Below are positions 17,963 through 64,000 of a DNA stretch of 64,000 nt, in pieces. The first letter of the stretch is position 1; each line of letters begins with the position of its first letter. This DNA is from Agapetus fuscipes (Eukaryota > Arthropoda > Insecta > Trichoptera > Glossosomatidae). A program made the position numbers and the translations under genes. The stretch spans positions 1,798,001-1,862,000 of the forward strand of contig OX637354.1 in assembly GCA_951799405.1 (NCBI GenBank), written 5' to 3'. The notes below the pieces were generated by a model. That model saw nothing but the letters and a program-made list of their open reading frames with translations. It made no database searches and was not told the origin of the DNA.

Positions 17963-18400
17963 TAATAATAATAATAATATAAGGATGATTTATTTGGTGA
18001 GTGCTGTTTTTGTGTGTATCACACCTCAAGAGCCCTCTGCGAGCTTCGTCGTCGCTGTAGAAAGTGCCAATTCTCAATCAAGACCCAGTTGTTGTAAGGT
18101 CGGATGGACCTTTCAGTGTCCGGTCTTTGGTAAAGGTGTATGAATTTTTCAACTCAGCAAAGAGCACATTCGAAATATAAATGGTATATTTATTGTGCTC
18201 CGAAGGGATTGGAATCCACAACCTTCCATTTACGAGTCCGAAGTGTTGCCACTGGACTACGGACCGGTCCAAGATGCGGACGACACGCGGTGTACCTGAG
18301 CGGTAACCCATCCAAGTACTATCCGCGCCCAATGTTGCTTAACTTCGGTGATCTATAGGAACCGGTGCTTTCAACATGGTAACGTCGTTGACGTTGACGT
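17963..18400 (-). mobile_element. Composite SINE: 5S rRNA head, tRNA-like part, CR1-LINE tail
   Basis: On the minus strand the order is a 5S rRNA-derived head (18392-18275), a tRNA-like unit with SINE-2 A and B boxes (18270-18190), the SINE-2 body, then a CR1-type 3' tail (GAGGTGTGATACACACAAAA) and a TTA-repeat end. It interrupts family E cleanly, and CTAA is found on both sides (17959-17962 and 18401-18404). That argues the whole chain moved as one element. Confidence 0.65.
18275..18392 (-). pseudogene. 5S rRNA-derived sequence (head of SINE)
   Basis: The minus strand shows 5S landmarks in order: ACCATGTTGAAAGCACCGG, GATCACCGAAGTTAAGCAAC, GGGCGCGGATAGTACTTGG, ATGGGTTACCGCT and CACCGCGTG. 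The length is about 118, close to the 120 of a real 5S gene. Changes in the GTTCTCGTCCGATC segment (here GTTCCTATAGATC), and fusion to a SINE body instead of a T-run terminator, mark it as a derivative and not a functional gene. Confidence 0.8.
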
Positions 18401-53600: not shown

Positions 53601-54564
53601 CCCATTATGTGGAAGAAATAAACCGATTTTTGCATTTTGAGGAACATCAGGAGTTCGGCTCCGATATACATTCATACGAACCTTGAAATATGTGGCTCGA
53701 TCGATCCAGGAATTTTTCGCCATCCAATTTGACTGCTAAACTTAATGATATAGGTAAGGGGCTATTCTTAGACATTTTAGTCGCCCGTTGAGCCCACGCC
53801 TTGACAAACTAAACAACTCCCGCATTATCGTGTTTTACGTTTTTTTCTCAGCTCAGATTGTGTAGAACGTGATTCTTAAAGCAATTTCATTGAAAGGTCA
53901 TCTAATCTAATCTAACTTGCAAAGATATGTAACATTGGGGATTCACATTACATGCATTCTCACAAGCAGACACATACAAGTTCGCGCTTGCGCATGCCGC
54001 ATGTGAACCTACACGGAAAAACCAAATCTCAAATGTGCATACACCCTTCAAATCCTGCCGACCTACCCTGAAACAGGGGTGACATTGGCAAAGTGAACCA
54101 TTTTCTACAGCATGGGTGGTCAGCCGCATACCAACCTATAAGTCAAGGAACATATTATACAACAAATAACATTTTAGATATAAACAAATGGATAAACATT
54201 AAAATCAAATACAAAATACAAAATTCTAATTTAAAATTTACAATCATCTTTGAATCAAATGGCAGATAAGCCGAACAAGCACTGAGGGCGGGGAAGATAA
54301 AAAATAAGGGCAGTAGGGGTAATTTTCGGGAAAGGAGGCCCCGAGGTTTTTCTTGCACCAGGGCTCCCAGAGGGGTTAATCCGGGCATGACTGGGGGGGG
54401 CGATATATTTGGTTGTCTCACCTCCTATGGCAGCCGTGATGGCGGCTATGGGCAGGGCCGGCAGTAGGGCGCGGGAACTGCTGGCGGCGCCCAGGGCGGA
54501 GAGCCACAGTACGCCCAGCGCCAGGCGGGAGCACCAGCCCGGGCATCGCATGCCGACACCTAGC
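20553..54564 (-). CDS. SLC7 cationic amino acid transporter, CAT-4-like (ten exons, 5' end not identified)
   Basis: A multi-pass membrane protein of the APC superfamily; relatives carry cationic or other amino acids across membranes. Model (minus): 54564-54422, 48464-48172, 46455-46321, 44526-44369, 36249-36008, 34830-34555, 30810-30617, 27787-27619, 26526-26371, 20689-20553. All internal sites are AG/GT and all nine junction phases agree (1,0,0,2,1,1,0,1,1). About 632 residues are covered, near the size of SLC7A4. The hydrophobic segments and loops line up with CAT-4 in order, including the long hydrophilic loop before the last four segments. Family signatures in TM1 (GSG/GAG-x-YV) and after TM6 (EE-x-x-NP) are not present, so this is a divergent paralogue that may not transport the usual substrates. 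Exons are GC-rich in AT-rich introns. Confidence 0.82.
20936..21191. mobile_element. MITE family B copy with TCTT duplication
   Basis: Ends CGCTCCCCCAGTTCTTGTTTG and CAAACAAGAACTAAGGCAGCG (each read in parts) are inverted. TCTT is on both sides, defining a 4-bp target duplication. The element sits in the last transporter intron. Confidence 0.8.
21382..25910. mobile_element. hAT-type element of 4.5 kb, riddled with insertions
   Basis: Ends TAGGGACTGGAAAAT and ATTTTCCAGTCCCTA are inverted and are flanked by CTTATAAA on both sides (21374-21381, 25911-25918), an 8-bp duplication as in hAT. Subterminal AATTCGCG motifs recur near both ends (21400-21540, 25790-25890). Inside are family A (22211), SINE 1 (22470, 23183, 23466), SINE 2 (22990, 24165), a CR1-like LINE end (23700-24160) and SINE 3 (25480). 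I recognise no transposase; 24300-25480 has short frames, the longest 24998-25432 (144 codons, +), that match nothing I know. Confidence 0.75.
23700..24165 (-). pseudogene. CR1-like LINE C-terminal fragment
   Basis: The minus strand gives the same FR-x-AG/RLPPGV and LHWLRFPER pattern as the copy at 404-845, with frameshifts. It is nested in the hAT-type element. Confidence 0.65.
26371..26526 (-). CDS. Transporter exon: membrane segments before the C-terminus
   Basis: The acceptor is TCTGTCCCCAG and the donor GCAG|GTACAT, phase 1 on both sides. Translation gives VVVAGGLCCWWQP, then RPSTPSVLRCVLGCALGALL and GVPLLADAWPAILLFTGAG. These align with the penultimate and last helices of CAT-4 proteins (family: PLIPALS and the last-helix GLxxYxxYG). 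Two other frames are also open but give no membrane-type pattern. Confidence 0.8.
26527..26999. other. Transporter intron, little recognised
   Basis: At 26800-26860 is ACAGTGTTTCATTAGAATTT, a motif also found at 46945 (inverted), 47035 and 49330, so it is probably an old MITE arm. Nothing else is seen. Confidence 0.35.
27000..27300 (+). pseudogene. CR1/L2-like LINE C-terminal fragment with CAT-repeat tail
   Basis: Encodes RSALTAVNKVIVPKRANT, FADRSFAVAGPVAWNNLP and TTFRKGLKTHF, the usual C-terminal pattern of CR1/L2-like reverse transcriptases, followed by stops and a (CAT)n tail. It is 5'-truncated. Confidence 0.75.
27334..27600. mobile_element. MITE family B copy
   Basis: Ends CGTCCCCTAGTTCTTGTTTG and CAAGCACTGGGGGGACG are inverted. 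Flanks ATTT and ATTA are one base short of a perfect 4-bp duplication. It ends 19 bases before the end of the next transporter exon (27619). Confidence 0.65.
27619..27787 (-). CDS. Transporter exon: segment after the long loop
   Basis: The acceptor is ATTTTTGTAG and the donor CCAG|GTAAAC. It encodes VSSTPETNGG, then SGKRATAGTIIVVTFSFVM and ATGAATSQPIVVFVALPG: one membrane helix and the start of the next. The acceptor is directly next to the tail of a SINE (27789-27915). A partial inverted copy of this exon lies at 30946-31083. Confidence 0.78.
27789..28400 (-). mobile_element. SINE tail and RTE-like LINE fragment
   Basis: 27789-27915 is the 3' half of the composite/SINE-2 family with CR1-type tail and TAA repeats, touching the exon acceptor. 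27950-28380 is an RTE-like LINE C-terminal piece (WMDKISEIANEWNIQ, KRRPCRKKVMTLDEM, KKRWLICNVGG) with frame breaks. Confidence 0.65.
28401..29006 (-). mobile_element. Helitron-like 3' terminus and flanking sequence
   Basis: At 28431 the minus strand ends ...GGTCTGCTAG after a hairpin-prone GC stretch and CGTAGGGCCTAGCAGCC, the counterpart of the terminus at 14880. The rest to 29006 may be its interior. A minus-strand frame of 81 codons (28667-28912) matches nothing I recognise. Confidence 0.4.
29281..30262 (+). repeat. Three diverged ~300-bp tandem units
   Basis: Landmarks GAAAAAAGTTT(T)CTTTC/TCC (about 29475, 29763, 30088) and AAAATGG(C/A)CGCC (about 29553, 29842, 30160) recur with a period near 300-310. 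The units are strongly diverged and show no ORF pattern. Confidence 0.55.
30325..30395 (+). repeat. 12-bp microsatellite
   Basis: ACAAACAAACGG is repeated about four times in direct tandem. The surrounding 30262-30545 shows nothing else. Confidence 0.8.
30545..30604 (+). mobile_element. CR1-like LINE 3' end next to an exon donor
   Basis: The sequence GAGCGCCGTTTTTGTGTGTG and CACACCTCAAGGGCCCTCTC is the CR1-type terminus. It lies 13 bases inside the intron from the donor of the transporter exon at 30617. Confidence 0.65.
30617..30810 (-). CDS. Transporter exon: acidic cytoplasmic loop
   Basis: The acceptor is GATTTCCAG and the donor CACG|GTAAAC. The 64 codons are hydrophilic (EVSCVTEERECLLLDEY, then a Ser/Glu-rich stretch, then DIDAVVKEYKDKIT). 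It corresponds to the long variable loop between helices of CAT-4 proteins. Its assignment rests on phase agreement, position and composition more than on conserved residues. Confidence 0.72.
30946..31083 (+). pseudogene. Inverted partial copy of the transporter exon 27619-27787
   Basis: The + strand encodes ASGKRATASTISVVAFSFVM then ATGAATSQPIVIFVSLPG and continues through the donor into about 20 bases of the same intron start (AACACTTCTGTACC). It lies opposite to the gene, inside the intron upstream of 30810. It begins within the exon with no acceptor, so it is unlikely to be used. Confidence 0.8.
31085..31358. mobile_element. MITE family C copy, TAA duplication
   Basis: Inverted ends GGGGCCGTCCATAAATTACG and ATATATGGACAGCCCC, flanked by TAA (31082-31084, 31359-31361). 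It directly follows the inverted exon copy. Confidence 0.75.
31359..31587. other. Intron with a family A scrap
   Basis: 31530-31580 carries a short family A end (ATCTAAGTTGCAAAAATATG). Nothing else is recognised. Confidence 0.4.
31683..31937. mobile_element. MITE family B copy, TAAT duplication
   Basis: Ends CGCTCCCCTAGTTCTTG and CAAGAACTAAGGCAGCG are inverted over more than 30 bases, with TAAT on both sides. It is nested in an RTE-like LINE fragment, which fixes the element ends exactly. Confidence 0.8.
31976..34500 (-). mobile_element. 2.5-kb TIR transposon with 8-bp duplication, unclassified
   Basis: Ends TAAGGTGGATCG and CGATCCACCTTA are exact inverted repeats, flanked by TTGCATAA on both sides (31968-31975, 34501-34508). 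The interior carries a decayed minus-strand protein (see next entry). Eight-base duplications occur in hAT, P, Merlin and others; I cannot place it. It lies 47 bases from the donor of the transporter exon at 34555. Confidence 0.8.
32300..33900 (-). pseudogene. Decayed transposon protein of unknown family
   Basis: Minus-strand frames at 33849-33531, 33483-32914 and 32657-32307 read as one broken protein. The central 189-codon frame has LQWCICQLHANELPRQLF, NGCTSGPRRYSEPIEKVL, a CEELP motif, and KLVHSRWLTGNNGF. I have a general memory of this motif order in repetitive proteins of aphids and cnidarians but cannot name a family. At least two frameshifts or stops separate the pieces, so it is not expected to be active. 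Confidence 0.6.
34555..34830 (-). CDS. Transporter exon: middle helices
   Basis: The acceptor is TTGATTCCAG and the donor AAAG|GTAACT, phase 1 both sides. It encodes GSLAAILAFACPMIHLVKLT, matching the CAT segment before and through TM8-9, then a hydrophilic Arg/Ser-rich stretch with VSAEGGSDTRYKRL. Three long overlapping frames in this GC-rich exon are shadows. Confidence 0.8.
34885..35150 (+). repeat. Repeat family E, uninterrupted copy
   Basis: Matches 17925-17962 plus 18401-18640 in order (landmarks AGCTAACATGGGTTTCTCTG, TATGAGAAGTTACAC, GGTGGCGATATA). It is the empty-site reference for the composite SINE. Confidence 0.6.
35663..35935 (-). mobile_element. LINE 3' fragment, second RTE-like family
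   Basis: Landmarks CAATCCTGGACGTAGGCCTC and GGCCACCTGTTGTGGTCTTG, followed by ACGACGTAACCAGCTCAGCG, recall the coding end of insect endonuclease/RT elements of a different subfamily. It is frame-broken. Confidence 0.45.
36008..36249 (-). CDS. Transporter exon: helices 7-8 region
   Basis: The acceptor is TTAATTTGCAG; a split Lys codon is completed from the previous exon. It encodes EYSESAAPLIQVFES, then ARPAIASLTVIALSLTMTEL and LLPLAVEALLLMASPEWRVL, ending AIFSAG before GTGACA. The order (acidic start, two hydrophobic spans, MA/LF-type loop) parallels the SLC7A4 segment that follows the VP-x-x-x-LDP loop. Confidence 0.82.
36325..36380 (-). mobile_element. SINE family 1 head fragment
   Basis: Minus strand GGTCGATAACTCAGTTGGTA then GAGTGATTGCATTCCATGC, a tRNA-like head without its body. 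It should not be called a tRNA. Confidence 0.6.
36503..36953 (+). pseudogene. LINE C-terminal fragment, third family
   Basis: Encodes VLTFASETWTLTKRDQ, DRLHWLGHIQRMDHRSLEK, GRRTVGRPRSRWLDGVV, and KTLDRQRWQPLLREAK ending near a (GAT)n tail. This is the C-terminus of a LINE of the same broad type as the RTE-like ones but a separate family. Its tail abuts the start of the 138-bp array. Confidence 0.7.
36954..40350 (-). repeat. 138-bp tandem array, left block (about 24.6 copies)
   Basis: Each unit on the minus strand is the last 101 nt of transporter exon 44369-44526 (from GGGACAACAAGCCGC to CTCCCTGCACAA) followed by the first 37 nt of its intron (GTAACACACACATGAC to ATAATCACT). Units differ by a few substitutions (donor-side GTGAG/GTAAG on the + strand, TGTGTG/TATGTG), and similar variants cluster, which indicates local homogenisation. 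One unit near 38180 has two extra bases. The array sits in the intron after the source exon. Confidence 0.93.
40339..43688 (+). mobile_element. Non-LTR retrotransposon with RNase H, 5'-truncated, inside the array
   Basis: Inserted at 40350/43677 with ACTTGTGCAGGG on both sides (40339-40350, 43677-43688), a target duplication of 11-12 bases. The 3' end has an A-run of more than 20. The ORF starts within the end of the endonuclease and runs through reverse transcriptase and RNase H, so the 5' part is missing. A clade in the I group is likely, because RNase H follows RT. Confidence 0.85.
40351..43370 (+). pseudogene. LINE ORF2 remnant: RT and RNase H
   Basis: Landmarks: endonuclease end SDHNFITLNY; PPWWSNDLDELRKEVNK; RT motifs KAPGHDQINADIL, KFRPISLLSVAGKVLEKLL, KQFGFRPQTSTVDAI, SLDVRGAFDAAWW, LGIPQGSCCGPGFWD and VVAFADDFVIIV; then RNase H EIFTDGSKLNGKVGCAF and NNQAEQIAIEKALEW. 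A one-base frameshift at about 42780 puts the end of RNase H (RLSWIKAHIGISGNERADQLA) in another frame (42918-43370). The open frame begins inside the tandem array only by chance. Confidence 0.85.
43689..44470 (-). repeat. 138-bp tandem array, right block (about 5.7 copies)
   Basis: Continues the left block after the LINE, in the same phase and orientation. The right-most copy runs into the genuine full exon (44369-44526), where the sequence upstream of GGGACAACAAG changes from intron-like (ATAATCACT) to coding (CTGCCAGCCACC). Confidence 0.9.
44369..44526 (-). CDS. Transporter exon: TM6-TM7; source of the 138-bp array
   Basis: The acceptor is TGCTTCCAG and the donor CACAA|GTAACA. It encodes LIMSAATCTYAFPAALPATG, then TTSRRLKCALLVVLPLTCM and AAITTVYSLISMH plus a split Lys. 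CAT family members have AGTASCFYAFVGFD-type sequence with EE-x-x-NP before the next helix. Here the first part is recognisable but the glycine/aspartate and EE-NP positions are replaced. The in-frame codon across the donor is AAG TAA, so failure to splice gives an immediate stop. Confidence 0.85.
44527..45350. other. Intron, not recognised
   Basis: Two short + frames (44460-44696 and 44851-45048) have no family I know. A TTTAATAAAGAAACACTTC segment at 45133 looks like a polyadenylation end of an old element. Nothing else is supported. Confidence 0.3.
45370..45750 (-). pseudogene. RTE-like LINE C-terminal fragment
   Basis: 122-codon open frame: MTGKTLRDRVRNEWVKKEC, VMRWFGHVKRMNDDRLTKHV, GRPRKVWSDQIEEIVKEW and KWRQLCRGSGHP. 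It is the same family as 10556-14157 but a different subfamily. The 3' end carries the ATTCCGCTAGGGGTGGCCAG terminus. Confidence 0.8.
45770..46210 (+). pseudogene. LINE C-terminal fragment, frame-broken
   Basis: After a pyrimidine-rich stretch, broken frames give WTKRKLEWNPLEDRRRK, DIKRIADGWMSKVQD and DEAYLQQWMRLAK (last part 46080-46200), the usual end of another endonuclease/RT LINE. Confidence 0.5.
46321..46455 (-). CDS. Transporter exon: TM5 region
   Basis: The acceptor is TTTGTTTGTAG and the donor ACGGG|GTATAC, phase 0 both sides, 45 codons: NNSTFTAILLTSVLSAVVLF, then VTAGSVAADTSSWG and QEGYLPDGWNG. Aligns closely with the SLC7A4 stretch with SSWLNHTFSAISLL-type helix and the following W-x-x-x-EGGFxPFGFSG loop. 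Confidence 0.84.
46611..46866. mobile_element. MITE with ~90-bp inverted arms
   Basis: The arms carry AGTACGAGTTGCAAAACTTG and TTTCCCCAAAATCTGCC with the reverse complement at 46775-46850. No ORF is present in the short loop. Confidence 0.65.
46890..47515. repeat. Intron with old inverted repeats
   Basis: Between 46905 and 47075, AGAACCAATTTTTTTAATGA and AACACTGTTTTATTTTCAC pair with ATAAAACAGTGTTTCATTAG and TTTTGGTTCTATAAAG, an old MITE. 47080-47400 is AT-rich with related scraps. 47400-47435 holds ACATGACAAAAC motifs. Confidence 0.45.
47900..48139. mobile_element. MITE family F (GGGCTATTCT ends)
   Basis: Inverted ends GGGCTATTCTCAGACATTTT and AAATGTCTAAGAATAGCCC continue through AGTCG and TTTGTCAAA pairing to about 55 bases. 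Half of another copy is at 53757-53812. It ends 32 bases from the donor of exon 48172-48464. Confidence 0.7.
48172..48464 (-). CDS. Transporter exon: TM2-TM4 region
   Basis: The acceptor is TACGTTTCAG and the donor AGAG|GTGAGT, phase 1 in, 0 out. Encodes GTCSRALTDLRAS, FCLCWGGLLGRLGALAGGA, RALGGTLDALSAGKARHWL and PDPIAVAAIAVVCVMFMCGL. The AxALxGTLDxLxxxK segment matches the CAT pattern with ARAWSGYLD. The preceding family motif CYAEFGARVPRTGSAY is only loosely kept here. Confidence 0.82.
48605..49310 (+). mobile_element. RTE-like LINE 3' ends with family A tails
   Basis: A family A start (48605-48670) is followed by an RTE C-terminal scrap (48670-48800, ending KKWRLICDVGG and TAG), its AT-rich 3' UTR, then family A (48900-49150) with AGATT repeats and a further partial copy to 49310. 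The chain shows coding end, UTR and tail in one piece. Confidence 0.7.
49517..49823 (+). repeat. 21-bp minisatellite
   Basis: About 14.5 identical copies of a 21-base unit (AAGTGGGTTATAATGTGATG plus G). Being a multiple of three, it opens long frames on both strands (GYNVMEV or NPLPSHY repeats), which are by-products. The copies are nearly free of substitutions, indicating recent expansion. Confidence 0.93.
49824..50212. other. Intron, little recognised
   Basis: 49895-49945 contains GGGGCAGCGGGGTGCAGCTG and a C-run that look like a MITE end. 49968-50030 resembles a family A scrap. The rest shows nothing. Confidence 0.3.
50213..50500. mobile_element. MITE family C copy, ATA duplication
   Basis: Same family as 7198-7477, inverted relative to it, flanked by ATA (50210-50212, 50501-50503). 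Confidence 0.75.
50501..50865. other. Intron, nothing recognised
   Basis: AT-rich sequence. ATACAGGGTGACTGGTAATTCG at about 50745 may be an old mobile-element end, but I could not find a partner. Confidence 0.3.
50990..51189. other. Assembly gap (200 N)
   Basis: A run of 200 undetermined bases, probably a fixed-size placeholder. It begins inside a family A repeat, so the break is likely due to repeats. Open frames crossing it are meaningless. Confidence 0.99.
51190..51690 (+). pseudogene. Possible Penelope-like element 3' end
   Basis: Directly after the gap a frame reads HSGCKGRQLIALETLEIHK and continues to ASPLLLTNCASLS and a stop at 51354. The KG-x-x-LxxLExLEI pattern followed by NxQ...SPLL resembles the C-terminal end of Penelope-like retroelement proteins. 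The 3' flank holds TAAATAAGTCGAAAGTACTT. Short and partial. Confidence 0.4.
52043..52689. mobile_element. Solo LTR, 647 bp
   Basis: Begins TGTTATG, ends CATAACA, flanked by GGAT on both sides (52039-52042, 52690-52693). GC-rich in the centre, no ORF of note. The TG...CA ends and 4-bp duplication fit a Gypsy-type LTR left after LTR-LTR recombination. Confidence 0.7.
52690..53054. other. Intron, SINE head scrap
   Basis: 52946-52975 has GTCCGGTCAATAGCTCAGTTG, the 5' tip of SINE family 1. Nothing else is recognised. Confidence 0.4.
53055..53468 (-). mobile_element. RTE-like LINE 3' end with family A tail
   Basis: Minus order: coding end (53470-53395, ...RKKWRLICNVGG and stop), AT-rich UTR, family A (53310-53055). 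The coding part stops at 53468, where unrelated coding-like sequence begins. Confidence 0.7.
53468..53640 (+). other. Coding-like fragment, family unknown
   Basis: An open + frame reads VAEKTATIVQQKLQFPGQK, DDDRRSSIEVAQKEDEE and VNISHCPLCGRNKPIFAF with a stop at 53638-53640. The composition is protein-like and the end has a CPLCG-type zinc-ligand pair. It is joined at 53468 to a LINE remnant. It may be part of an unrecognised mobile element or a captured exon. The segment downstream (53641-53690) shares CTCCGATATACATTC with the palindrome at 3274-3470. Confidence 0.35.
53757..54290. mobile_element. MITE F and B remnants split by an RTE/family A insertion
   Basis: 53757-53812 is half of MITE F. 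53812-53900 and 54240-54290 are two parts of a MITE B. The LINE tail between them (53900-54243) is flanked by TCATCT on both sides, which gives the insertion boundaries. Confidence 0.6.
54422..54564 (-). CDS. Transporter exon: TM1-TM2 region, first recognised exon
   Basis: The acceptor is GTGGTTGCAG and the donor GGAG|GTGAGA. It encodes LGVGMRCPGWCSRLALGVLW, then ALGAASSSRALLPALPIAAI and TAAIG. The LGVG opening matches the start of TM1 in CAT proteins (L-LGVG-x-x-x-GSG), but the following GSG/GAG-Y-V signature is replaced. The exon needs an upstream exon ending in phase 2. A perfectly placed ATG is absent here. Confidence 0.68.
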
Positions 54565-54910
54565 CTGCAACCACACAGCGTTATCCACCACCAGCCACAG
54601 AAACACAAGCACCAAACAACTCCAAAGACATTCCAAACTCACGGTCTCTATTTCAATCATGGTGGTGCGTAAATCTATAATCTAAGCTGCTAAGATATGT
54701 TAACATTTAAGGCTCATATTAAATGCATGCCCACAAACAGGCACATGTAGGTTCGCGCCGTTCGCGTTTACACATTCTGCATGTGTGCATACAAATAAGC
54801 AAAACCTCACATGAACATAAACCTTGCAACTCCTGCCGCCGTTCCCTAAACCGGGGTGGCATTGGCAAAAGTGAACCGATTTTTACAGCACGGGTGGTCA
54901 GCCTCGCTAT

Positions 54911-55852
54911 TTATTTTTACATGTAAGCGTGAAAGCCTTACGCGAACCACTTCAGTTGAAGTGGGAGTTTCCATGCTCCCGACGGGGCTGGTACTCATTT
55001 CTAGTGCTTTAACCGTTATTTTATGTTGCGTTTGAAATATACACCTTAACGGGAAATAATTTTTGACACCCTAGGTGGGATTCGAACCCGAGCTCTCGGC
55101 ATAGAGTGCAAGCACTCTACCAATTGAGCTATCGCACCACCATCCAGAGCAACATATAACTCCGAAGACATTCCAAACTCCCCGTATTTGTTTCAATCAT
55201 GGAGGCGCGGAAACAGCTGATCGCTGTACCATACAGTTTATATATGTTACCGTTACTGTATCCTGCCGCCGTTCCACTAGGGGTGGCCGGTACCTCTGCA
55301 GATGCGTCTCCACTTTTTTCTGTCCTTGCATGTCTCTTTCATCTCTTCAACATTCATCACTTTCTTCATACGTAAATACTGTAACGAACGTTTGAGTTCG
55401 TGGGGCTTGCTTGTGTGTGTTTGTTCGCCTCGAGCATAGTCTACTGTGAGTTTTTTTGTGTATATGTACCTAGGCATGTAGTTTGTTAGTGTGTAACTGA
55501 AATAGTGACAAACAGCTAGTATAATGATCAAATAGATGATAGTAGACTGTTCTGGTACAGTCCACTATATAATAATTTAGAATAAGCAAGAATCGTCCCT
55601 TTCGTACCTATATTTTTGAGCCGCAATTGTGTGGAGGCCAGGGCGTTTGAATCATTGTGACGGAAAGCCAGAAAAAGGAGTCAGTACTGTGTAACCGTAT
55701 CTTGTGTGAAATAAAATTTGAAACATAAAAGAACCCAAATAAAATCGTTACAATGCTCTTCTCTTATTCTGACTCAGCAGGTTCTATTCTTTCACAATCT
55801 CACCTATTTGGTCTATCCATTCCTTTCTCGATGAAAAATATAAACAAAGCAA
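54911..55852. mobile_element. SINE 1, duplicated segment and RTE-like end
   Basis: 54917-55140 is SINE 1 (-). The stretch 55145-55205 repeats 54600-54665 (both hold CATTCCAAACTC and TTTCAATCATGG), a local duplication. 55247-55380 (-) is an RTE-like LINE 3' end; 55745-55835 carries another piece of it. 55380-55740 between them, with TGTGTGTTTGTTCGCCTCGA, is an insertion in that LINE and is not otherwise recognised. Confidence 0.5.
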
Positions 55853-58740
55853 ACGCAACTAAGCTACACATATAGTGTAACTTCTTGCCTGCGTTGACCG
55901 GGACCTAATTATTTTTACTGTTAAGGGGGCCAGCCTCACGCCAACCACTTCAGTTTAAGTGAGAGTTTCCCAGCTCCCGACAGGGCTGGTACTCATTTCT
56001 TGTGAAGGCTAAGGGAAAGCCTTGCAGCTATCTTATTTTGCGTTTGAAATAAAAGCCTAAACGGGAAATAATTTTTGACACCCTCGGTGGGATTCGAACC
56101 CGAGCTCTCGACGTGTAATGCAAGCACTCTACCAACTGTCATTTTTTTACATAAATAACTAAACGGAAAATTATTTTTCACACCCACAGCGAAATGACCT
56201 GAGGCTGACCAACCTTACTGTAAAAAATAGTTTAGTAACAATATTTTTTTTTTATAAAAAATAGATTTGTGGAAAGGAATGCAATCCACCAACCTATTTT
56301 ACCTGGCCAGTTGTCTTCATGCGAAAGCTGAAGCTTGTGTGCATGCAACGGTATCTGTTGAACCAGGGTCGAAGTTATCGTCGCGGGATTCGAACCAGCG
56401 TTATCCGGTTCCAAATAACCTGTCTTGATCCCCGCGGCTATAACACCGACGAACGTAATCTACAAACTTATTTTGTAGATTACGGTAGAATTCGAACCCG
56501 AGCTCTCGGCATGGAATGCAAGCATTCTACCAACTCGGCTATCGACCGGACTGTACTTACTAACAATATTATAGATTTTATCTGGTAAAGTGTAATATAA
56601 TAAATGAGCTAGGCCAAACCTACAAAAAATATCGATTTCTCCGCACCCCAAATAGCTGCATTAACCCTTATCACGAAAATCATTAAGCATGTATGTACAT
56701 AGGTAACACCATCATGGTAGAATATCCATTGTTACCAAAATGAGCAATAACTCCATCACTTTTCCGTTATGAGTGGCCAGAGTACCTGCAGATTTGCCTC
56801 GCAACTCGCAATTGAAGACTGCAGGGAAGAACAAGGAATGTCAGTTAATTTCAAGAAAATAATGAGTAAATCTATAATCTAAGCTGCAAAAATATGTAAA
56901 CATTTAAGGCTCATATTAAATGCATACCCACAGACAGGCACATGTAAGTTTGCGCCTACACATTCTGCATGCGTGCATACAAATAAACAAAATCTCAAAT
57001 TAACATAAACCTTGAAACTCCTGCCGCTTTTCCCTGAAACCGGGGTGGCATTGGCAAAAGTTAACCGATTTTTACAGCACGGGGGGTCAGTCAAGGAGCA
57101 GTCAAGGTGCAGCACCATCTATACTAATCTATAATCTAAGTTGCAAAGGTATATTAACATTCAAAGCTCATATCAAATGCATGCCCACAAACAAACACGT
57201 GTAGTTCGCGCTTACAAATGCTGAATGTGTAGGTACCTACTTACAAATAAAATCCAAAACTCAAATGAACATAAACCCTACAATTTTTGCCGGCCTTCTC
57301 TGATACAGGGGTGACATTGGCAAAGTTAACCATTTTTTACAGTATGGGTGGTCAGCCTCATACCAACCTATAAGTCAAGGAATTGTATAATATCCATGGT
57401 TACCAAAATGAGCAATAACTCCATCACTTTTCCGTTATGAGTGGCCAGAGCCCCTGCAGAATTGCCTCTATCTTGCAACTCGCAATTGAAGACTGCAAGG
57501 GGGAGAACAAGGAATGTCAGTTAAAGAAAATAATGAGCTTAAATCAAAATTAGAAATTTGAAATCATGGTTATTACTTACCTGTCACAATGAACCGGAAA
57601 TACCACCATAGATGTAATAGCGACTGTTGTTGCATTACAAATTTTGCAGAGCTTTAGATACGCAAAGATGCCACTAGATTTTACTTTTTTTCTTACGAAC
57701 TTATTTTTGCTGACATTCCTTGTTATTCCCCTGTAGTCTTCAATTAAGCTACACATATAGTGTAACTCTCTGCCTGCGTTATCCCCGTATGGGTCGCATG
57801 TTGTGATTCGTGACTTATTTTTTTACGGGTAAAAGGGCCGGCCCACGCCAACCACTTCAGTTGAAATGGGATTTTCCCAGCTCTCGAGGGCGCTGATTCT
57901 CATTTCTTGTGAAGGCTTATTAGGTACCTACATATTGTCGGTATTTATTTTGGGTTTGAAATAAACACCGACACGGGAAATCATTTCTGACAAGCTCTGT
58001 GGGGAACGAACCTTTGCTCTCGGCATGGAATGCAAGCATTCTACCAACCGAGCCATCGACCGGAATTTTTACGAGCTTGATTGTCGCATCAAAGCGCCAA
58101 TTCTCAAACAAGACTCAGTTGCTGTATGGCTGGATGGACCTCTCTTCTTTTAATAAATCTAATCTAATCTAATCTAAGTTGCAAAGATATATATCATTTA
58201 AGGTTTATATTAAATGCATTCCCACAAGCAGACATGTATAATTTCGCGCTAACACATGCTGCATGTGGACCTACAATATAAAAACCCAATCTCAAATGAA
58301 CATAAGGTCTGCAACTCTTGCCGTCCTTCCCTGAAACAGGGGTGACATTGGCAAAGTGAACCATTTTCTACAGTATGGGTGGTCAGCCGCATACCAACCT
58401 ATAAGTCAAGGAACTAATAAGAACCTATAAGTCAAGGAATAAAAATTATAATAATTGGACAATTTTAGAAATCGCCGATTAGTGGCACTAGCCACCCCAA
58501 GAGCGCTTTTATGTGTTGAAGCTTCTGTTAAACAATTAAACTGCCAACACTGGTCTCTGTTCTCAACTCCAGAGGTAGACTGCTCCAGCAGGATGGACCA
58601 GCCGAACTAAAAGCCCTAAAAGATATATTGACATTTAAGGCTCGCTTGCACATGCTGCATGTGTGCATAAAAAATAAACCAACCTCACATGAACATAAAC
58701 AGTTACTAACATAAATGAAACATCTGAACATTATATGGAA
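55852..58740. mobile_element. Dense SINE and LINE-tail block
   Basis: In order: SINE 1 (55852-56145, -), SINE 3 (56270-56455, -), SINE 1 head (56484-56555, -), RTE end (56756-56870), family A (56870-57090 and 57125-57382, -), RTE end (57418-57540), SINE 1 (57742-58066, -), family A (58155-58415, -), then at 58528-58610 a minus LINE scrap with RAFSSAGPSCWSSLPLELR. At 57581-57609 there is a weak candidate for a first transporter exon (see findings). Confidence 0.6.
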
Positions 58741-59919
58741 ATTTTAACCACTCCTTTCTGTTCGACAAAAGATATTTATAATCTAAGATGCAAAGATAAA
58801 TAATAATTTTAAGTAAGATTCACACTTCATGCTCGCTCACAAGAAAGGTCGTACAAGTTTACGATTCCGAAAACCTCAATCTCAATTGAGTACCTACCCA
58901 TATATTCTGCAGCTTTTGATACCATTCTTTGAATCAGGGGTGGCATCGACTTAGTGTACCTACTTATCATTGCTTGATTTTCTGGTTCCGGGTTTGAAAC
59001 TGGCCGTGAAAGCCTAAAAACATCTACTTATCATTTTTTTATAGTTTGGGTAGTCAGCCTCATACCAATATAAAATAAAATATATTTTTAACCAAAGAGG
59101 TAATCATTCCATCGGTGTTGTTAACAAATAAAAATAATTCCTCTAAGAACGTTTTTAGCAGGGAACCCTCGCCTCTAGTCAAGTGGTTGGCGTAAGGCTG
59201 CCCACTTATTCGTACAAATAGTAAAAATAAACAGGTGCCACCCCTTCGGTACAAATGCGGCAAGAAGTTATTCTGTATGTGCGGCTATGTTGTTTTTAAT
59301 GATTCTGTTACTGTAACTCAGTCGACGTTCTGCTAGGGGTGCCCTGAGCCTCTGCATAGTTGCTTTTACGAGTTTGTAAAGTACCTAAATATATTTTTAG
59401 GAAAAACTTACCTTGTGAAAAATTCAAAATTAAAATCGATCTCTTTGTCATTTTGGAACATGTAGTAGACACTTCACCAAGACAGACACAGGAAATTCAA
59501 ATTTGGAACAAAACAAAAGAACGTCGAATCTTTTGTTTTTTTTTGTTTTATTCAATTTTATTTTCAGAAACGTAAACGTCAAAATCACACATTTTAATAA
59601 TGTAAATTTTCAATGCGAAAACGCACATATCTCAACCGCGAAGTTACAAAAATAACTTATTTGATCAATATCTCACAATCTAACAATTATCACAAATTAC
59701 CAATTCGTTTAGAGGAAAATCAAAAGGCACTCAAAACACAAGTAAATTAATATATCCTTCTCTGTGTTTACTTATTCATCATTAATTTTAACGTTGTTTT
59801 TTTATTATTACTCTCGATTCAGACGCATTGTTATGTAGTTAATGTATAACCTTGTATTATATTTAATCGATAATTGAATATTTTCTTGTTAATGTGGGAT
59901 TATTTATCGTGGAAAGTAA
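58741..59919. other. Mostly unrecognised, with SINE and LINE scraps
   Basis: Diverged family A (about 58780-58960), SINE 1 tail (59160-59285, -), an RTE-like end (59308-59360). From 59360 to 59919 I see AT-rich sequence only; the + frame at 59360-59575 has no family I recognise. Confidence 0.4.
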
Positions 59920-59929
59920 GGAAGTAGTT

Positions 59930-60065
59930 TTCAGCTGTAGGACAATCCGCACTATACGTCTGACGTTAGACAGGGACGCCATGATGCGCGCGTCCCGCTC
60001 GTGCGGAGAAAATGGCGGCTGCGCACAACATCACAATTCCATTACGGCGCAGCATTCGAAATTCA
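59930..60065. promoter_or_regulatory. CpG-rich island, possible promoter or first exon
   Basis: Unlike its AT-rich surroundings, this stretch is rich in CpG (GATGCGCGCGTCCCGCTCGTG). On the minus strand ATCATGG at about 59980 opens a frame beginning MASLSNVRRIVRIVLQ. It could be the promoter/5' exon region of the transporter, or the end of another gene. No splice-donor phase matches the known next exon. Confidence 0.3.
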
Positions 60066-60258
60066 AATTTTCATGCAGTATTATTTTACTAACTTCTCTG
60101 CTTTGAATTTTTGTTAAATTTTTGAAAATAATTTTATGATTAAGCTGTAATCTAAGTTGTAAGGATATATTAAAATTTAAGATTCATATTGCGTGCATCC
60201 CCATAAGCAGACAGCGAAACGTCGAGAACACTGAAAATCTCTAACTAACGGTTCATAT

Positions 60259-60730
60259 TGTTACGAAATTAGGGTTCAATTGTCTTCAAATTAAAAATAC
60301 ACAGGTCTTCTTCAATAGTTATTTATTTTACACAGTTACAAAATTTATTTTCACACTACTTTCTCGATTATTCTACTTGGTTTCGGTTCACTGATCAGAT
60401 CACTTCGATGTGTTTGTGAGTCTCTATGATACTGGCCCGCTCTGCAGGCCATTCGCACCTTTATACTCTTCAGAGCAGTATGATCCAGAACTAAAGTCGC
60501 CAGACGGTTCCAGAGTAATTATTACTTCTCGATGTTTCACGTACTACCTAGACACAACCAAAATCCTACCTACCAATGCAATACAGTATTCCTATAATTA
60601 TAACAAATACCTACTTAGCCTAGAGAATTCTACACTTATACATAATTATCGATCTTACCTACCAATACTTTTGAGGATTCTTATAACTATAACTACCCAT
60701 ACTTATTTCAATATTTATATTTACATAACA
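60259..60730 (-). repeat. 3' LTR, 472 bp
   Basis: Complete LTR, matching 63785-64000 over all of the visible part. In element orientation it starts TGTTATGTAAAT and ends CCTAATTTCGTAACA. The flank at 60252-60258 is TTCATAT; the matching duplicate would lie outside the window. Confidence 0.88.
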
Positions 60731-63109
60731 CTACCCCCCACCTAGACTGTTTCGTCCCGGAACAGTCTTGACTCTGTGTAGGTAGGGGCATGCTGATCCA
60801 CGTCGACACCCTGTGGTCAGGAAGAAGTGGCAGTCCACGGATTTCTCCCCACTGGCTCTCGGCTGCGCTTGCTCGCAGCACACCATGATGCTGATGCCGA
60901 CTCCCGAGAACACTGCTTCAATCATACTCCGGATTATCCGCCAGTCTCGATTAGCGCGGCCGCCACCCATCTTCGGTATTGCCAGACGCGCCTGCTGATC
61001 CTCCAACATGTAGTCACGCAGCTCAACAAGGCCGTCCCACAATGCCTTGTAGTCCTCTTCCAGGTTGCTGGAATCCGGGACAACCAGGCAGTATGCTTGT
61101 TGACGCCCCTTCGGTAGTCTCAGAGCTCTTCCTTGCGGGCTGCTCGAGGGTTGCGGTTCTCCGAATTTGTATCGGAAGACCCGTGCAATTCCTCTAGACA
61201 TATCTAGATCTTCCGGTACACTGCATGCCAGTGTGTGGTCCCCAGTGACCTCAAATAAGTCCTTGTGGACTTCTGTGGTCACCCCATGGCGAATCTTCTG
61301 TCCCTCTTGCACCTTGCTCCAGAACGTCTCAAACAGGGGCGCTTCTTTGGATGCGACGCATTTTTGTACTCTCTGGGCGGGCTGGTCATTGTTTGACCAC
61401 TTTGCTCTTTGAGTTGGCCGGTGGTTATCCTTCATTCGAGCTCCCGCCTCCTTGGTGTTGCTGTTCTTGGACTCCAGGTTGGCGATGGTGTCCTTCGTCC
61501 TGGGCCCCTGCCCAGCTTCCAGCTGCTGGAGCTTAGTCTTAAGCCCCTTGTTCTGTCTCTCCAGGCTCAGCACAGTCTCGTGCAACTCGTCCCTCTCGGC
61601 CTCCGCTGTTCGCCGGACCCTTTCACTGCTGGCCAAGTTCTTCGTCAGCTGCCTGTTCTCCGTCTCCATGACTTTGACCTTTCTCTCGGCATCCTGGAGC
61701 TGTTTCCTCAGCCGTTTGTTCATCTCCATGGTGGTCTCTACATCCTTGCGGTCGTCTTCCAATTTCTCCGGTCCTTGAGACTTTGGGCACCTCGCGCTCA
61801 GGTGTCCTTGCTGGCCACACGTCCAGCAGTGCGCCTTCTGTCTCGTTGGCTCAAGTTGCTGCAGCACTTTTTCTATTATTTCCTCGGTTGTAGGTAGTTT
61901 GACCTCCTCTGCCTTGATTGCACAAACCCTGGCGTGGCCCCTGATGGACTGTTTGACAGCCTCAAATTCGAGAGCTCGGCTTAGCGCCTCGTTCAACGTC
62001 TTTGGAAGAGCCAGCTTCACTGCTTGCTGCGTCTCCCATTCTCTCAATCCGTTCAGGAACTTGTCCACTGCCAAGCTCTCGCAGATGTCATCAGGGAATG
62101 TCGGGTAAGCGTCTCGTACTAGGTGGACGATGTCCATCTCAAACTCCTGGAGGCTCTCGTTGGGCTTCTGCACCCTTGTGTTCAGCTGTGACTTGTACAG
62201 CTGCCCCAGGCACTTGTGGCCATAGCGCATATCCAAGCGCTGCTTCAGCTGCCCAAAGTCACCACGGTTGTCCAGGGGTATGGCCTGCAGAACCCTGAGA
62301 GCGTCTCCTCGGAGCGACAGGCTGAGAACCGAAGCCTTCTTCTGCTGGCTCCAGGCTCCCATCATGGCAGCCGTCTCAAAGAGGGTCAAATACTCCTCCC
62401 ACGACGTCTTCCCGTCGAAGGTCGGAAGGTTGTGCTTCGACAGCGAAGGGTCGTCATCCCCTCTAGTGACCCTGGTTGGAGTTGAGCATCCCTGGTCGGT
62501 CTCGTCGTGAAGGCCGTCTTTGGGGGATATTCTGGTGGACTCCATCTGGCACTTGTCAGCCAGCTCGGCACGCAGACGGTCCTCCAGGCTTGATATACGA
62601 GTCTCCATTTCCCCCTTAAGGGCTGTCATCTTCTCTTCCATTTCTCCTTTCAGGGTTGTGAGATTTCGGGACACCTTTTCCTCCAGATTCCTGGCGTTGT
62701 CAGCCATTTCCACCTTCAGGTCGGTCACCACTTCCTTCAGGTTGGTGGTCATCTTCTCCTCCAGGGTCTTGGCGTTGTCAGCCATCTTCTCCTCCAGGGT
62801 CTTGGCGTTGTCAGCCATCTTCTCCTCCAGGGTCTTGGCGTTGTCAGCCATCTCAGTCTTCAGTCCTGTCAGGTTGCTGGTTAGCTCCTCCTTCATGGAC
62901 TTTGTGATGCTGATATTTAGCTCGTCCAAGGCGCGGTCCCCTCCAGACGCCATGACAAAATATGCCGGGTCTTCGCCTGACTGTTCTAAGGCCTCCATGA
63001 GGCGTGCCTGTAAGGCCGCCTTCCCTCCTGAGGTCTCCAGGTCCCTCTCCAGAAGCTCATTTTTAAGCTCAGTGACTTTGAGGTCCTTGATGTTCACTTT
63101 GGTTGCCAT
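60731..63109 (-). CDS. Gag-like fusion protein: SAP, coiled coil, Gag, CCHC, coiled coil, macrodomain, CCCH
   Basis: 792 residues from ATG at 63109 (AAAAAAATGG context; the frame is open three codons further but without ATG). Residues about 5-40: SAP-type nucleic-acid-binding motif. 60-185: coiled coil with an 11-residue MADNAKTLEEK repeat in three copies. 228-390: retrotransposon Gag capsid (WEEYLTLFETAAMMGAW, GDALRVLQAIP, FGQLKQRLDMRYG, ESLQEFEMDIVHLVRDAYP). 428-441: CCHC knuckle CWTCGQQGHLSARC. 455-530: second coiled coil. 612-745: macrodomain like TARG1/OARD1 (KDLFEVTGDHTLACSV, DLDMSRGIARVFRYKFG, AIPKMGGGRANRDW, RSMIEAVF). 760-778: CCCH finger C-x7-C-x5-C-x3-H. The stop TAG lies in the polypurine tract. 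Gag would form particles; the macrodomain would bind ADP-ribose or a related ligand. The combination in one Gag is the odd feature. Confidence 0.85.
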   Translation of the reverse strand: MATKVNIKDLKVTELKNELLERDLETSGGKAALQARLMEALEQSGEDPAYFVMASGGDRALDELNISITKSMKEELTSNLTGLKTEMADNAKTLEEKMADNAKTLEEKMADNAKTLEEKMTTNLKEVVTDLKVEMADNARNLEEKVSRNLTTLKGEMEEKMTALKGEMETRISSLEDRLRAELADKCQMESTRISPKDGLHDETDQGCSTPTRVTRGDDDPSLSKHNLPTFDGKTSWEEYLTLFETAAMMGAWSQQKKASVLSLSLRGDALRVLQAIPLDNRGDFGQLKQRLDMRYGHKCLGQLYKSQLNTRVQKPNESLQEFEMDIVHLVRDAYPTFPDDICESLAVDKFLNGLREWETQQAVKLALPKTLNEALSRALEFEAVKQSIRGHARVCAIKAEEVKLPTTEEIIEKVLQQLEPTRQKAHCWTCGQQGHLSARCPKSQGPEKLEDDRKDVETTMEMNKRLRKQLQDAERKVKVMETENRQLTKNLASSERVRRTAEAERDELHETVLSLERQNKGLKTKLQQLEAGQGPRTKDTIANLESKNSNTKEAGARMKDNHRPTQRAKWSNNDQPAQRVQKCVASKEAPLFETFWSKVQEGQKIRHGVTTEVHKDLFEVTGDHTLACSVPEDLDMSRGIARVFRYKFGEPQPSSSPQGRALRLPKGRQQAYCLVVPDSSNLEEDYKALWDGLVELRDYMLEDQQARLAIPKMGGGRANRDWRIIRSMIEAVFSGVGISIMVCCEQAQPRASGEKSVDCHFFLTTGCRRGSACPYLHRVKTVPGRNSLGGG

Positions 63110-63444
63110 TTTTTTCAAAATTTACTTCAAAACAAAAATATTTTTAAATTTATTTAATACAAGTTTTGAGTTTTATATATATAGCTGTTTTGAATACGTA
63201 CTTTAGCAAAATAATAATTTATCTGATTACACTGATTGGTAGGTACTGTCTTTTAATATTTATTTTTAAATCACCAATATTTTTAACATAATAATGTCTG
63301 ATAGTACATAATTATTTATTTCGTCTCAAGTCTTTCAAACACACAGGTAGGTACTTAATGTACATTCACACACTTGTAAACGAAGGACAGCTATTCAAAA
63401 ACTTTTTCTCGATGAATCTGGAACGTTCTTTTGTAATATTTTTC

Positions 63445-63477
<33 letters not shown>

Positions 63478-63784
63478 TCACACACAATAATAAAAAAACT
63501 ATGGTCCAATTTGATGACTTTCTCAATGCGGTAAAATAGTCATTATGTTATGTCCAGAATTATGTCCAGAATTATGTTCCATATGATGTTCCAGAATTTA
63601 TAAGCAACTTGCTTTTGCGTCTTTTCTTTTAACAAAAATTTATTTAAACACTTGTTTTCACAAAAGTCAGTTCACACAAAGTTCAATTTGAATAAAGTTC
63701 ATTTTAACACTTATTTAATTTATTTTATTTATTTTTAGACAGAAGATCTTAATTTTTCTTGACAACCCCACACCTGACACCAAT
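63110..63784 (-). promoter_or_regulatory. LTR element leader and primer-binding site
   Basis: Untranslated leader between the 5' LTR and the ORF. At its start (63767-63784) is the primer-binding-type sequence ending ...CACACCTGACACCAAT on the + strand. It includes a run of 26 T (A in element orientation) at about 63450-63475. No other ORF. Confidence 0.65.
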
Positions 63785-64000
63785 TGTTACGAAATTAGGG
63801 TTCAATTGTCTTCAAATTAAAAATACACAGGTCTTCTTCAATAGTTATTTATTTTACACAGTTACAAAATTTATTTTCACACTACTTTCTCGATTATTCT
63901 ACTTGGTTTCGGTTCACTGATCAGATCACTTCGATGTGTTTGTGAGTCTCTATGATACTGGCCCGCTCTGCAGGCCATTCGCACCTTTATACTCTTCAGA
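63785..64000 (-). repeat. 5' LTR, cut by the window end
   Basis: Same sequence as 60259-60474. About 256 more bases are expected past 64000 if the LTRs are equal in length. Confidence 0.88.

What the first reader, a model, noticed from the sequence alone, without database searches (positions are those of the whole stretch)
60731..63109. LTR-retrotransposon Gag fused to a TARG1-type macrodomain and a CCCH zinc finger
Seen: one 792-residue frame with SAP, Gag and CCHC parts followed by KDLF-x-x-x-x-x-x-LACSV, M-x-x-GIA-x-x-F-x-x-x-FG and AIPKMGGG-x5-DW, then C-x7-C-x5-C-x3-H. Known: the first set is retroelement Gag; the second is the TARG1/OARD1 ADP-ribose hydrolase fold; CCCH fingers with macro or PARP-type domains are typical of antiviral ADP-ribosylation factors. 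Inference: the element captured a host ADP-ribose-handling module, perhaps to counter or use host ADP-ribosylation, as some viruses do with macrodomains. I know of no described element with this layout.
Basis: partly seen in the sequence, partly recalled or inferred. Interest (0 to 1): 0.88.

Follow-up and report, generated by a model that had tools for sequence, protein, structure and literature searches.

The report
Jumping genes carrying an ADP-ribose domain
A very young and abundant insect-type retrotransposon makes a capsid protein fused to a domain that in our cells reads or removes ADP-ribose tags, and related elements in the same genome carry that domain in their polymerase polyprotein, in two different places and in both intact-looking and worn-out forms.

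Summary
On the minus strand (63109-60731) one intact 792-residue frame joins SAP, Gag capsid, CCHC, coiled coil, a TARG1-type macrodomain (OARD1, E 1.7e-10) and a CCCH finger, between 472-bp LTRs that are 100% identical in the genome copy. It is no one-off: 150 copies of this Pol-less family (N) were scored in the 618-Mb genome. The module was probably not captured by Gag: an autonomous Ty3/Gypsy family (A, 150 near-identical copies scored) carries the same macrodomain-CCCH at the end of Pol, right after integrase. N shares A's leader, PBS and PPT and is a recombining mosaic with A (macrodomain-CCCH 99.6% identical, neighbouring segments 61-75%). The hydrolase reading fails for this copy: TARG1 S35, T83, K84 and D125 are replaced; D20 and the GxG loop remain. 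A second family (B) also lacks K84 and D125 yet shows purifying selection. A third lineage (C) has an intact-looking TARG1 domain between RNase H and integrase. Best reading: a non-catalytic ADP-ribose-type reader or tether on integrase or Gag, with N mobilised in trans by A. Ligand binding is untested.

The parts
60255..60258 (.). target-site duplication ATAT (one side; the other lies beyond the window)
   Evidence: 4-bp TSD found on the genome copy L002
60259..60730 (-). 3' LTR, 472 bp, TGTTA...TAACA
60731..60745 (-). polypurine tract CTAGGTGGGGGGTAG, which also encodes the last codons and the stop of the ORF
   Evidence: sequence; same in family A copy L012
60731..63109 (-). intact 792-aa ORF: SAP - coiled coil - Gag capsid - CCHC - coiled-coil linker - macrodomain - CCCH
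62984..63091 (-). SAP domain (res 7-42)
   Evidence: Pfam PF02037 E 1.1e-8
62750..62853 (-). 33-bp tandem repeat coding for part of the N-terminal coiled coil (EEKMADNAKTL units)
   Evidence: the 28 N ORFs read are 773-813 aa long
61835..62539 (-). Gag capsid region (about res 191-425)
   Evidence: 57-61% identical Gag homologues
61787..61828 (-). CCHC zinc knuckle (res 428-441)
61394..61771 (-). coiled-coil linker (res 447-572), seen only in the non-autonomous family N
   Evidence: 150 scored of 240 candidates, all 98-100% identical; no match in the fetched A, B, C pieces
61277..61393 (-). pre-macro segment (res 573-611), homologous to the stretch just after integrase in family A, about 74% nt identity
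60875..61276 (-). TARG1-type macrodomain (res 612-745)
   Evidence: PDB OARD1 E 1.7e-10, profile 3.8e-26, Foldseek top eight all TARG1
61076..61081 (-). V677-P678, positions of TARG1 T83 and catalytic K84 (both replaced)
   Evidence: alignment; K84 counts; roles from PMC6397177 passages
60953..60955 (-). A719, position of TARG1 D125 (replaced)
60776..60832 (-). CCCH zinc finger (res 760-778)
63110..63784 (-). 5' leader, 675 nt, similar to that of family A
   Evidence: 98.1% identity to the A leader for the window copy; 97.2% or more in 21 of 22 copies tabulated
63766..63782 (-). primer-binding-site-like stretch TGGTGTCAGGTGTGGGG
   Evidence: position next to the LTR; the A copy read and 22 of 24 N copies have TGGCGTCAGGTGCGGAA; tRNA not identified
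63785..64000 (-). 5' LTR, 216 of 472 bp inside the window, 100% identical to the 3' LTR
   Evidence: the full pair in L002 is 472/472 identical

Best explanation
The window holds one young copy of a Pol-less, Gag-encoding LTR retrotransposon family (N). Shown: N has no room for protease, RT, RNase H or integrase (LTRs, leader and ORF fill its 3,998 bp); an autonomous Ty3/Gypsy family (A) in the same genome has them and carries the same macrodomain-CCCH module directly after integrase; N and A share leader, PPT, LTR ends and, in most copies read, the PBS, and are recombinant mosaics; the macrodomains of A, N and family B lack the TARG1 catalytic K and D, while P0007 and two family C copies keep them. 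Inferred: N RNA is packaged and reverse-transcribed with A's Pol in trans, template switching between co-packaged N and A RNAs keeps replacing N's 3' module, and the macrodomain now acts as a non-catalytic binder, probably of ADP-ribose or an ADP-ribosylated target, with the CCCH finger binding RNA. On A it sits where chromodomains sit in other Gypsy integrases (recalled), so the most likely job is tethering the integration complex or particle to a target, not removing ADP-ribose. Rough confidence by step: anatomy and trans dependence on A 0.9; not a TARG1-type hydrolase 0.85; reader or tether 0.4.
For: Window element: LTR pair 472/472 identical, TSD ATAT, 3,998 bp. N in general: 28 of the best-ranked copies read, 24 with both full LTRs; mean LTR-pair mismatch 0.24%, 6 identical pairs, 18 with a perfect 4-bp TSD and 4 more once a 44-bp U3 duplication is counted. 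Of 150 linker-scored copies (chosen without reference to the macrodomain) 128 have an open frame of 740 aa or more (hand count). Family A: 150 of 150 scored rows (1,416 candidates) 99% identical to P0008, about 106 with a 1,422-aa open frame (hand count). Pieces of one A copy: aspartic protease, RT and RNase H (Ty3-G E 1.1e-88), integrase, then macrodomain-CCCH. That copy has the PBS of most N copies and the same final codons/PPT. Mosaic: 22 of 28 N copies tabulated against A: leader mean 97.3%, capsid 94.0%, NC 61.1%, pre-macro 74.6%, macro-CCCH 99.6%, U3 start 87.3%; L059 has A-type pre-macro (97.4%) and L052 A-type U3 (100%), so breakpoints differ. Catalytic residues: K84 position P in 28/28 N and 8/8 A, R in 25/25 B; D125 position A in 27/28 N (T in one), 8/8 A, 25/25 B; D20, the GIA/GVA glycine and GxG kept in all 61. 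Selection: B macrodomain has 10 synonymous and 5 nonsynonymous variable codons in 25 copies (binomial p 5.6e-4 against an assumed 76% nonsynonymous share); A-B macrodomain 51% aa identity at pS about 0.74-0.75.
Against: No binding, expression or mobilisation was or could be tested. The distal-ribose side chains S35, T83 and D125 are all replaced in A/N, so ADP-ribose binding itself may be lost or changed. Within N the macrodomain shows pooled dN/dS 1.0, and N against A 0.61 for the macrodomain and 0.84 for CCCH; I attribute this to post-insertion drift of very young copies, but it gives no support for constraint on the module in N. N open frames are expected to be mostly intact from youth alone, and the 28 copies read are top-ranked by similarity. 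The A macrodomain diverges from B faster than integrase does (pN 0.34 against 0.14), which fits weak constraint as well as adaptation. The linker's origin is unknown.
Confidence: 0.6

Rival explanations
1. Passive cargo: the module in N is a leftover of the Pol deletion, kept only because template switching with A keeps replacing the 3' end and because the copies are young; the fusion protein's macrodomain does nothing for N.
For: macro-CCCH 99.6% identical to A while neighbours are 61-75%; within-N dN/dS of the macrodomain about 1.0; the ORF runs straight into the PPT, so the 3' end of the RNA carries the module anyway.
Against: The frame through NC, the foreign linker, the pre-macro segment and the macrodomain has stayed open although the pre-macro segment is at dS about 0.86 from A; 128 of 150 linker-scored copies are open for 740 aa or more (hand count).
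Confidence: 0.25
2. Active counter-defence: the lineage took up TARG1 as a hydrolase to strip ADP-ribose that host ADP-ribosyltransferases put on element RNA, cDNA or proteins; A, B and N later lost catalysis.
For: P0007 and two family C copies (L069, L071) match the TARG1 pattern TKx(30,35)Px[IL]GxGxD (pattern from PMC6397177); P0007 and L069 score E about 1e-32 and 1e-22 against human TARG1; TARG1 removes ADP-ribose from DNA thymidine (PMC8501950 passages); RNA-virus macrodomains are a precedent (recalled).
Against: The window's own copy and all 61 A, B and N tails counted lack K84 and D125.
Confidence: 0.2
3. Host gene or domesticated fusion rather than a mobile element.
For: Intact ORF with several nuclear-type domains.
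Against: Identical LTR pair, TSD, PBS-like stretch, PPT and 150 scored dispersed copies; the host OARD1-like exon is a separate locus.
Confidence: 0.02
4. Assembly or annotation artefact.
For: None found.
Against: Many insertions with different flanks and TSDs; a protein from a separate public record, P0008, 94% identical over the module.
Confidence: 0.01

Closest known systems
Human TARG1/OARD1/C6orf130 macrodomain
   Same: fold and alignable length (E 1.7e-10), adenine-contact D20, GxG phosphate loop
   Different: S35, T83, K84 and D125 replaced in A/N; K84 and D125 replaced in B; fused to Gag or Pol and to a CCCH finger
Fish epsilon-like endogenous retroviruses with macro-domain ORFs (Basta 2009, seen only as cited in one passage of PMC4977317)
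   Same: a macrodomain carried by an LTR retroelement
   Different: there an additional ORF of a retrovirus; here in frame in Pol after integrase or in a Gag fusion of a Ty3/Gypsy element, with a CCCH finger; whether theirs is TARG1-type was not seen
Chromoviruses (Ty3/Gypsy with a chromodomain after integrase)
   Same: reader-type domain C-terminal to integrase (position recalled; a reference title on chromodomains directing integration appears in PMC9289625)
   Different: macrodomain plus CCCH instead of a chromodomain; targeting untested
Orchid Gypsy elements with an AlkB-type RNA demethylase (PMC9289625, abstract and passages)
   Same: capture of a modification enzyme by a Gypsy element
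   Different: additional ORF, plant host, enzyme activity shown in vitro there
Non-autonomous Gag-only LTR elements (TR-GAG, plants; search listing only, definition recalled)
   Same: LTRs, PBS, PPT and a Gag ORF without Pol
   Different: animal host; Gag fused to a Pol-type module; recombination with the autonomous partner

Membership tests
Ty3/Gypsy LTR retrotransposon (family A, partner of the window element) | RT close to Ty3 | tested here: met
   L076 piece: RVT_1 E 7e-38; best PDB sequences 4ol8 RT/RNase H E 6e-89 and Ty3-G Gag-Pol 7q5b E 1.1e-88
Ty3/Gypsy LTR retrotransposon (family A, partner of the window element) | order PR-RT-RH-IN | tested here: met
   separate pieces of one copy on C1 (L068, L076, L012): aspartic protease, RT + RNase H, integrase
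Ty3/Gypsy LTR retrotransposon (family A, partner of the window element) | RT phylogeny and clade name | not tested
   no set of animal Gypsy RTs at hand
Non-autonomous LTR retrotransposon (window element, N) | LTR pair, TSD, PBS and PPT | tested here: met
   24 of 28 copies read have both full LTRs, 22 of these 24 a clear 4-bp TSD; PBS-like stretch and PPT
Non-autonomous LTR retrotransposon (window element, N) | no RT or integrase of its own | tested here: met
   no RT, integrase or protease model among 18 Pfam hits up to E 10; two LTRs, leader and ORF add up to the 3,998 bp of the element
Non-autonomous LTR retrotransposon (window element, N) | tRNA that primes at the PBS | not tested
   PBS-like stretch present; tRNA genes not compared
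TARG1-type macrodomain (fold) | sequence homology to TARG1 | tested here: met
TARG1-type hydrolase | catalytic K84 and D125 / pattern TKx(30,35)Px[IL]GxGxD | tested here: not met
   window V677-P678 and A719; pattern met by P0007, L069 and L071
TARG1-type hydrolase | ADP-ribose binding | not testable with these tools
   D20 and GxG kept; S35, T83 and D125 side chains lost
CCCH RNA-binding finger | C-x7/8-C-x5-C-x3-H | tested here: met
   28/28 N, 8/8 A, 25/25 B keep all four ligands; RNA binding untested
PARP/ZAP-type antiviral factor | PARP catalytic or WWE domain beside CCCH | tested here: not met
   no such Pfam hit up to E 10

The most novel reading that the evidence does not exclude
A lineage of insect-type Ty3/Gypsy elements took up TARG1 as an active enzyme at the end of its integrase and turned it into a dead-enzyme ADP-ribose reader that steers integration, as chromodomains do, while a Pol-less parasite of these elements carries the same reader on its Gag. 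TARG1 was also placed, still intact-looking, at the RNase H-integrase junction of another lineage in the same genome, so ADP-ribosylation is a recurrent battleground or landmark for LTR retrotransposons.
Probability: 0.3. Interest if true: 0.87.

Novelty: new variant of a known kind. Interest (0 to 1): 0.74.

Why it matters
TARG1-type macrodomains are scarce: 326 of 22,435 macrodomain sequences matched the pattern in PMC6397177 before curation (passage). Finding TARG1-like domains inside Pol of several families in one genome, at two different places, with one lineage losing the enzyme but keeping the domain under selection, suggests that ADP-ribosylation matters to LTR retrotransposons in a way that the literature listings seen here did not show. 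It can be tested: copies are young, numerous and mostly intact, and there is a natural contrast between intact-looking (P0007, family C) and catalytically degenerate (A, B, N) domains. The N/A pair is also a clean case of a Gag-encoding, Pol-less element that recombines with its likely helper.

Tried and rejected
Protein search with residues 590-792 as part of the whole ORF: nothing; the same stretch as a short query found P0008. Viral contigs: five scans, no relative. Bacterial/archaeal genome contigs: nothing with the macrodomain; one Gag-query hit, in Mycolicibacterium (L001), covers only residues 127-238 (coiled coil) at 30% and is rejected as chance. AlphaFold twice with three sequences: low confidence; not used for residue-level claims. 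A host source for the linker: none among the 150 scored of 240 candidates. Single or repeated capture of TARG1: retroelement domains group together against host and human with 64/69 support only, unresolved, and treekit warned that long branches meet. Family D spacer (L074): the search gives 40-41% identity with family C across RNase H end-macro-H2C2, but it has no PDB match at E 10 and lacks the GxGxD loop, so I do not call it a macrodomain. The label Erysiphe pulchra on P0007: its integrase is about 70% identical to A and B; I suspect animal DNA in a fungal assembly, unverified. Basta 2009 itself is not held. Rows dropped: 6 of 28 N copies without the MATK anchor in the mosaic table (among the 22 kept, L051 and L058 are outliers for leader and LTR because only one full LTR was recognised there); 5 of 30 fetched B loci (L019, L020, L032, L041, L043) without a clean tail; L053 (ambiguous) and L003 (none) not counted as TSD.
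Full report
What is there. The frame reported at 60731-63109 lies on the minus strand and encodes 792 residues without a stop. Pfam finds SAP (7-42), CCHC (428-443) and CCCH (756-778) but no Macro and no Gag model. A direct sequence search of the PDB gives human OARD1/TARG1 at E 1.7e-10 for residues 612-743 and CPSF30-type fingers for the CCCH; a three-sequence profile raises this to E 3.8e-26. Two AlphaFold runs had too few sequences (mean pLDDT 37 and 47), but the eight best Foldseek matches of the better model are all TARG1 entries. The capsid part has five homologues at 57-61% identity, all with SAP and three of five with Retrotrans_gag.

The element. Direct repeats at 60259-60730 and 63785-64000 are LTRs. 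The genome copy (L002) shows the whole element: 3,998 bp, two 472-bp LTRs with no difference, a 4-bp TSD ATAT, a PBS-like stretch after the 5' LTR and a purine tract before the 3' LTR that also encodes the last codons and the stop. LTRs, leader and ORF add up to its length, so there is no room for Pol. The host is an unnamed 618-Mb genome in 148 contigs whose contig C1 begins with TTAGG telomere repeat, so probably an arthropod (that TTAGG marks arthropods is recalled).

Copies. The whole ORF has 65 match rows from 57 scored candidates, 'stops inside: none' in each row. Searching with the linker alone, which ignores the macrodomain, 150 of 240 candidates were scored; all are 98-100% identical and, by my hand count, 128 of 150 have an open frame of at least 740 residues. 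I read 28, the best-ranked (L002-L009, L048-L067), so the sample leans to close, intact copies. In 24 both LTRs were complete: mean mismatch 0.24%, 6 identical pairs, 18 perfect 4-bp TSDs, and 4 more after allowing for a 44-bp U3 duplication; L053 is ambiguous and L003 has none. The copies are very young.

Where the module comes from. P0008, a 232-residue protein from an ENA record, matches the window module at 94% and begins with what aligns to an integrase C-terminus. Searched in the own genome it gives 150 of 150 scored rows at 99% identity, about 106 with an open frame of 1,422 residues (hand count): this is family A. Pieces of one A copy show a Gag of 453 residues much like the window's up to the NC region, an aspartic protease in an overlapping frame, RT and RNase H with Ty3-G among the two best PDB matches, integrase, and then macrodomain and CCCH. 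P0007, filed by its source under Erysiphe pulchra, has the same order: integrase domains (203-372, C-terminal domain to 555), TARG1-like domain (E 1.4e-32 to OARD1, residues 597-733), CCCH (746-769), followed by another Gag, probably a neighbouring copy in a spliced gene model. So the module belongs to the end of Pol, and the window's layout is the Pol-less form.

N and A recombine. For 22 of the 28 N copies (6 lacked the MATK anchor and were dropped) mean identities to A are: leader 97.3 (21 of 22 at 97.2 or more; L051, with no recognised 5' LTR, 68.2), first 200 nt of gag 96.8, capsid 94.0, capsid C-terminal part 89.7, NC 61.1, pre-macro 74.6, macro-CCCH 99.6, first 110 nt of U3 87.3 (in the 100-nt profiles of three copies the windows holding the U3 start read 66-75%). 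By codons, dS between N and A is about 0.007 in the macrodomain but 0.86 just before it. L059 carries an A-type pre-macro segment (97.4%) and L052 an A-type U3 (100%), so breakpoints differ between copies. This is what template switching between co-packaged RNAs would leave (inference). The A copy read has the PBS of 22 of 24 N copies and ends in the same codons/PPT.

Catalysis. TARG1 uses K84 as nucleophile and D125 for release; S35 and T83 contact the distal ribose, D20 the adenine, and a GxG loop the phosphates (PMC6397177, passages). TARG1 K84A could not rescue DarT toxicity (PMC8501950, passages). By alignment the window has P632, V677, P678 and A719 at S35, T83, K84 and D125 and keeps D617 (D20; labelled D615) and G715-x-G717. 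Across copies the K84 position is P in 28 of 28 N and 8 of 8 A, and R in 25 of 25 B; the D125 position is A in 27 of 28 N (T in one), 8 of 8 A and 25 of 25 B; D20, the GIA/GVA glycine, both loop glycines and the four CCCH ligands are kept in all 61. P0007, L069 and L071 match the published TARG1 pattern. In the tree P0007 is sister to B, A and N (97/95), so loss of catalysis within this lineage is the simplest order.

Selection. A and B differ near saturation of silent sites (pS 0.74-0.75 in the macrodomain), yet their macrodomains are 51% identical; integrase is 77-78% and CCCH 47%. Within B, 25 copies (of 30 fetched, of about 48 rows at 44-45%) show 10 synonymous and 5 nonsynonymous variable codons (binomial p 5.6e-4 against an assumed 76% nonsynonymous share). 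So a catalytically degenerate domain is kept, more loosely than integrase. Within N the pooled dN/dS of the macrodomain is 1.0, against 0.145 for the capsid; N against A it is 0.61, and 0.84 for CCCH. The silent diversity there (pS 0.0046) is of the order of the LTR divergence, so I read it as drift after insertion; it neither supports nor excludes constraint. Pooled pairs are not independent, and only 8 A copies were sampled.

A second placement. With human OARD1 as query the own genome shows host-like exons (L070, L072) and family C. Its two copies read (L069, L071) have TARG1-like domains with intact K and D upstream of the integrase zinc domain; in L069 the stretch before it is an RNase H end (judged by its ADALSR-type motif, recalled) (Pfam Integrase_H2C2 E 2.6e-18 and 2.9e-16; L069 against OARD1 E about 1e-22). 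One search lists nine C rows (98-100% or 72-73%, one with a stop; a further row is a broken end of the same copy) and eight rows of a further family D at 40-41% with frames of 1,278-1,285 residues; the D spacer read (L074) has no PDB match and no GxGxD loop. Whether the two placements stem from one capture is unresolved (64/69).

How it probably works. A's Pol supplies RT and integrase in trans to N (inferred from shared ends and mosaics). The module after integrase is placed like the chromodomain of chromoviruses (recalled), and with the hydrolase residues gone the likeliest role is a binder, perhaps of ADP-ribosylated chromatin, DNA or capsid partners, with the CCCH finger touching RNA. The intact-looking domains of P0007 and family C could still be hydrolases that clear ADP-ribose from element products. 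None of this was tested.

Known or new. Captured domains in Gypsy elements are known (AlkB in orchids, PMC9289625, abstract and passages), and macro-domain ORFs in fish retroviruses are mentioned in PMC4977317 (one passage). The listings of the searches aimed at this question showed no TARG1-type domain in Gag or Pol of a Ty3/Gypsy element; most listed papers were not opened, and subscription papers were not searched. I file it as a new variant of a known kind.

Noticed in passing
L069, L071 (G000:C21:11274489-11274863; G000:C147:118681-119055): Another Pol lineage (family C) with an intact-looking TARG1-type macrodomain between RNase H and integrase
   Followed up: partly
L074 (G000:C30:2595720-2596560) and L075 (G000:C5:18113450-18114290): Related elements have a spacer of roughly 150 residues at the same RNase H-integrase junction with no detectable macrodomain; the L074 spacer may be a decayed one
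   Followed up: partly
L027, L026 (family B): Family B copies in which Gag sits close to integrase or its remnant and the macrodomain-CCCH: separate internal Pol deletions that kept the module
   Followed up: partly
window 62750-62853 and the 28 N ORFs: The N-terminal coiled coil holds 33-bp repeats, and the N ORFs read vary from 773 to 813 aa
   Followed up: partly
five family A rows with open frames of 1834-1861 aa: Some A copies seem to have Gag and Pol in one open frame instead of two overlapping ones
   Followed up: no
window 36955-40351 and 43677-44473: 138-bp tandem array (24.6 and 5.8 copies, 97% match), open as a repetitive protein-like frame and interrupted by a frame that looks like a non-LTR RT (by eye) and one with RNase H (E 3.4e-10)
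   Followed up: partly
window 10586-13882, minus: Open 1098-codon frame (stop to stop) of a non-LTR retrotransposon: RT E 4.8e-36 and a weak endonuclease match
   Followed up: partly
window 18275-18392, minus: 5S rRNA gene or copy (Rfam 79.4 bits, full length)
   Followed up: no
window 53000-60000: Cluster of dispersed repeats, some with stretches that look tRNA-like by eye (ARAGORN found no tRNA), perhaps SINE-derived
   Followed up: no
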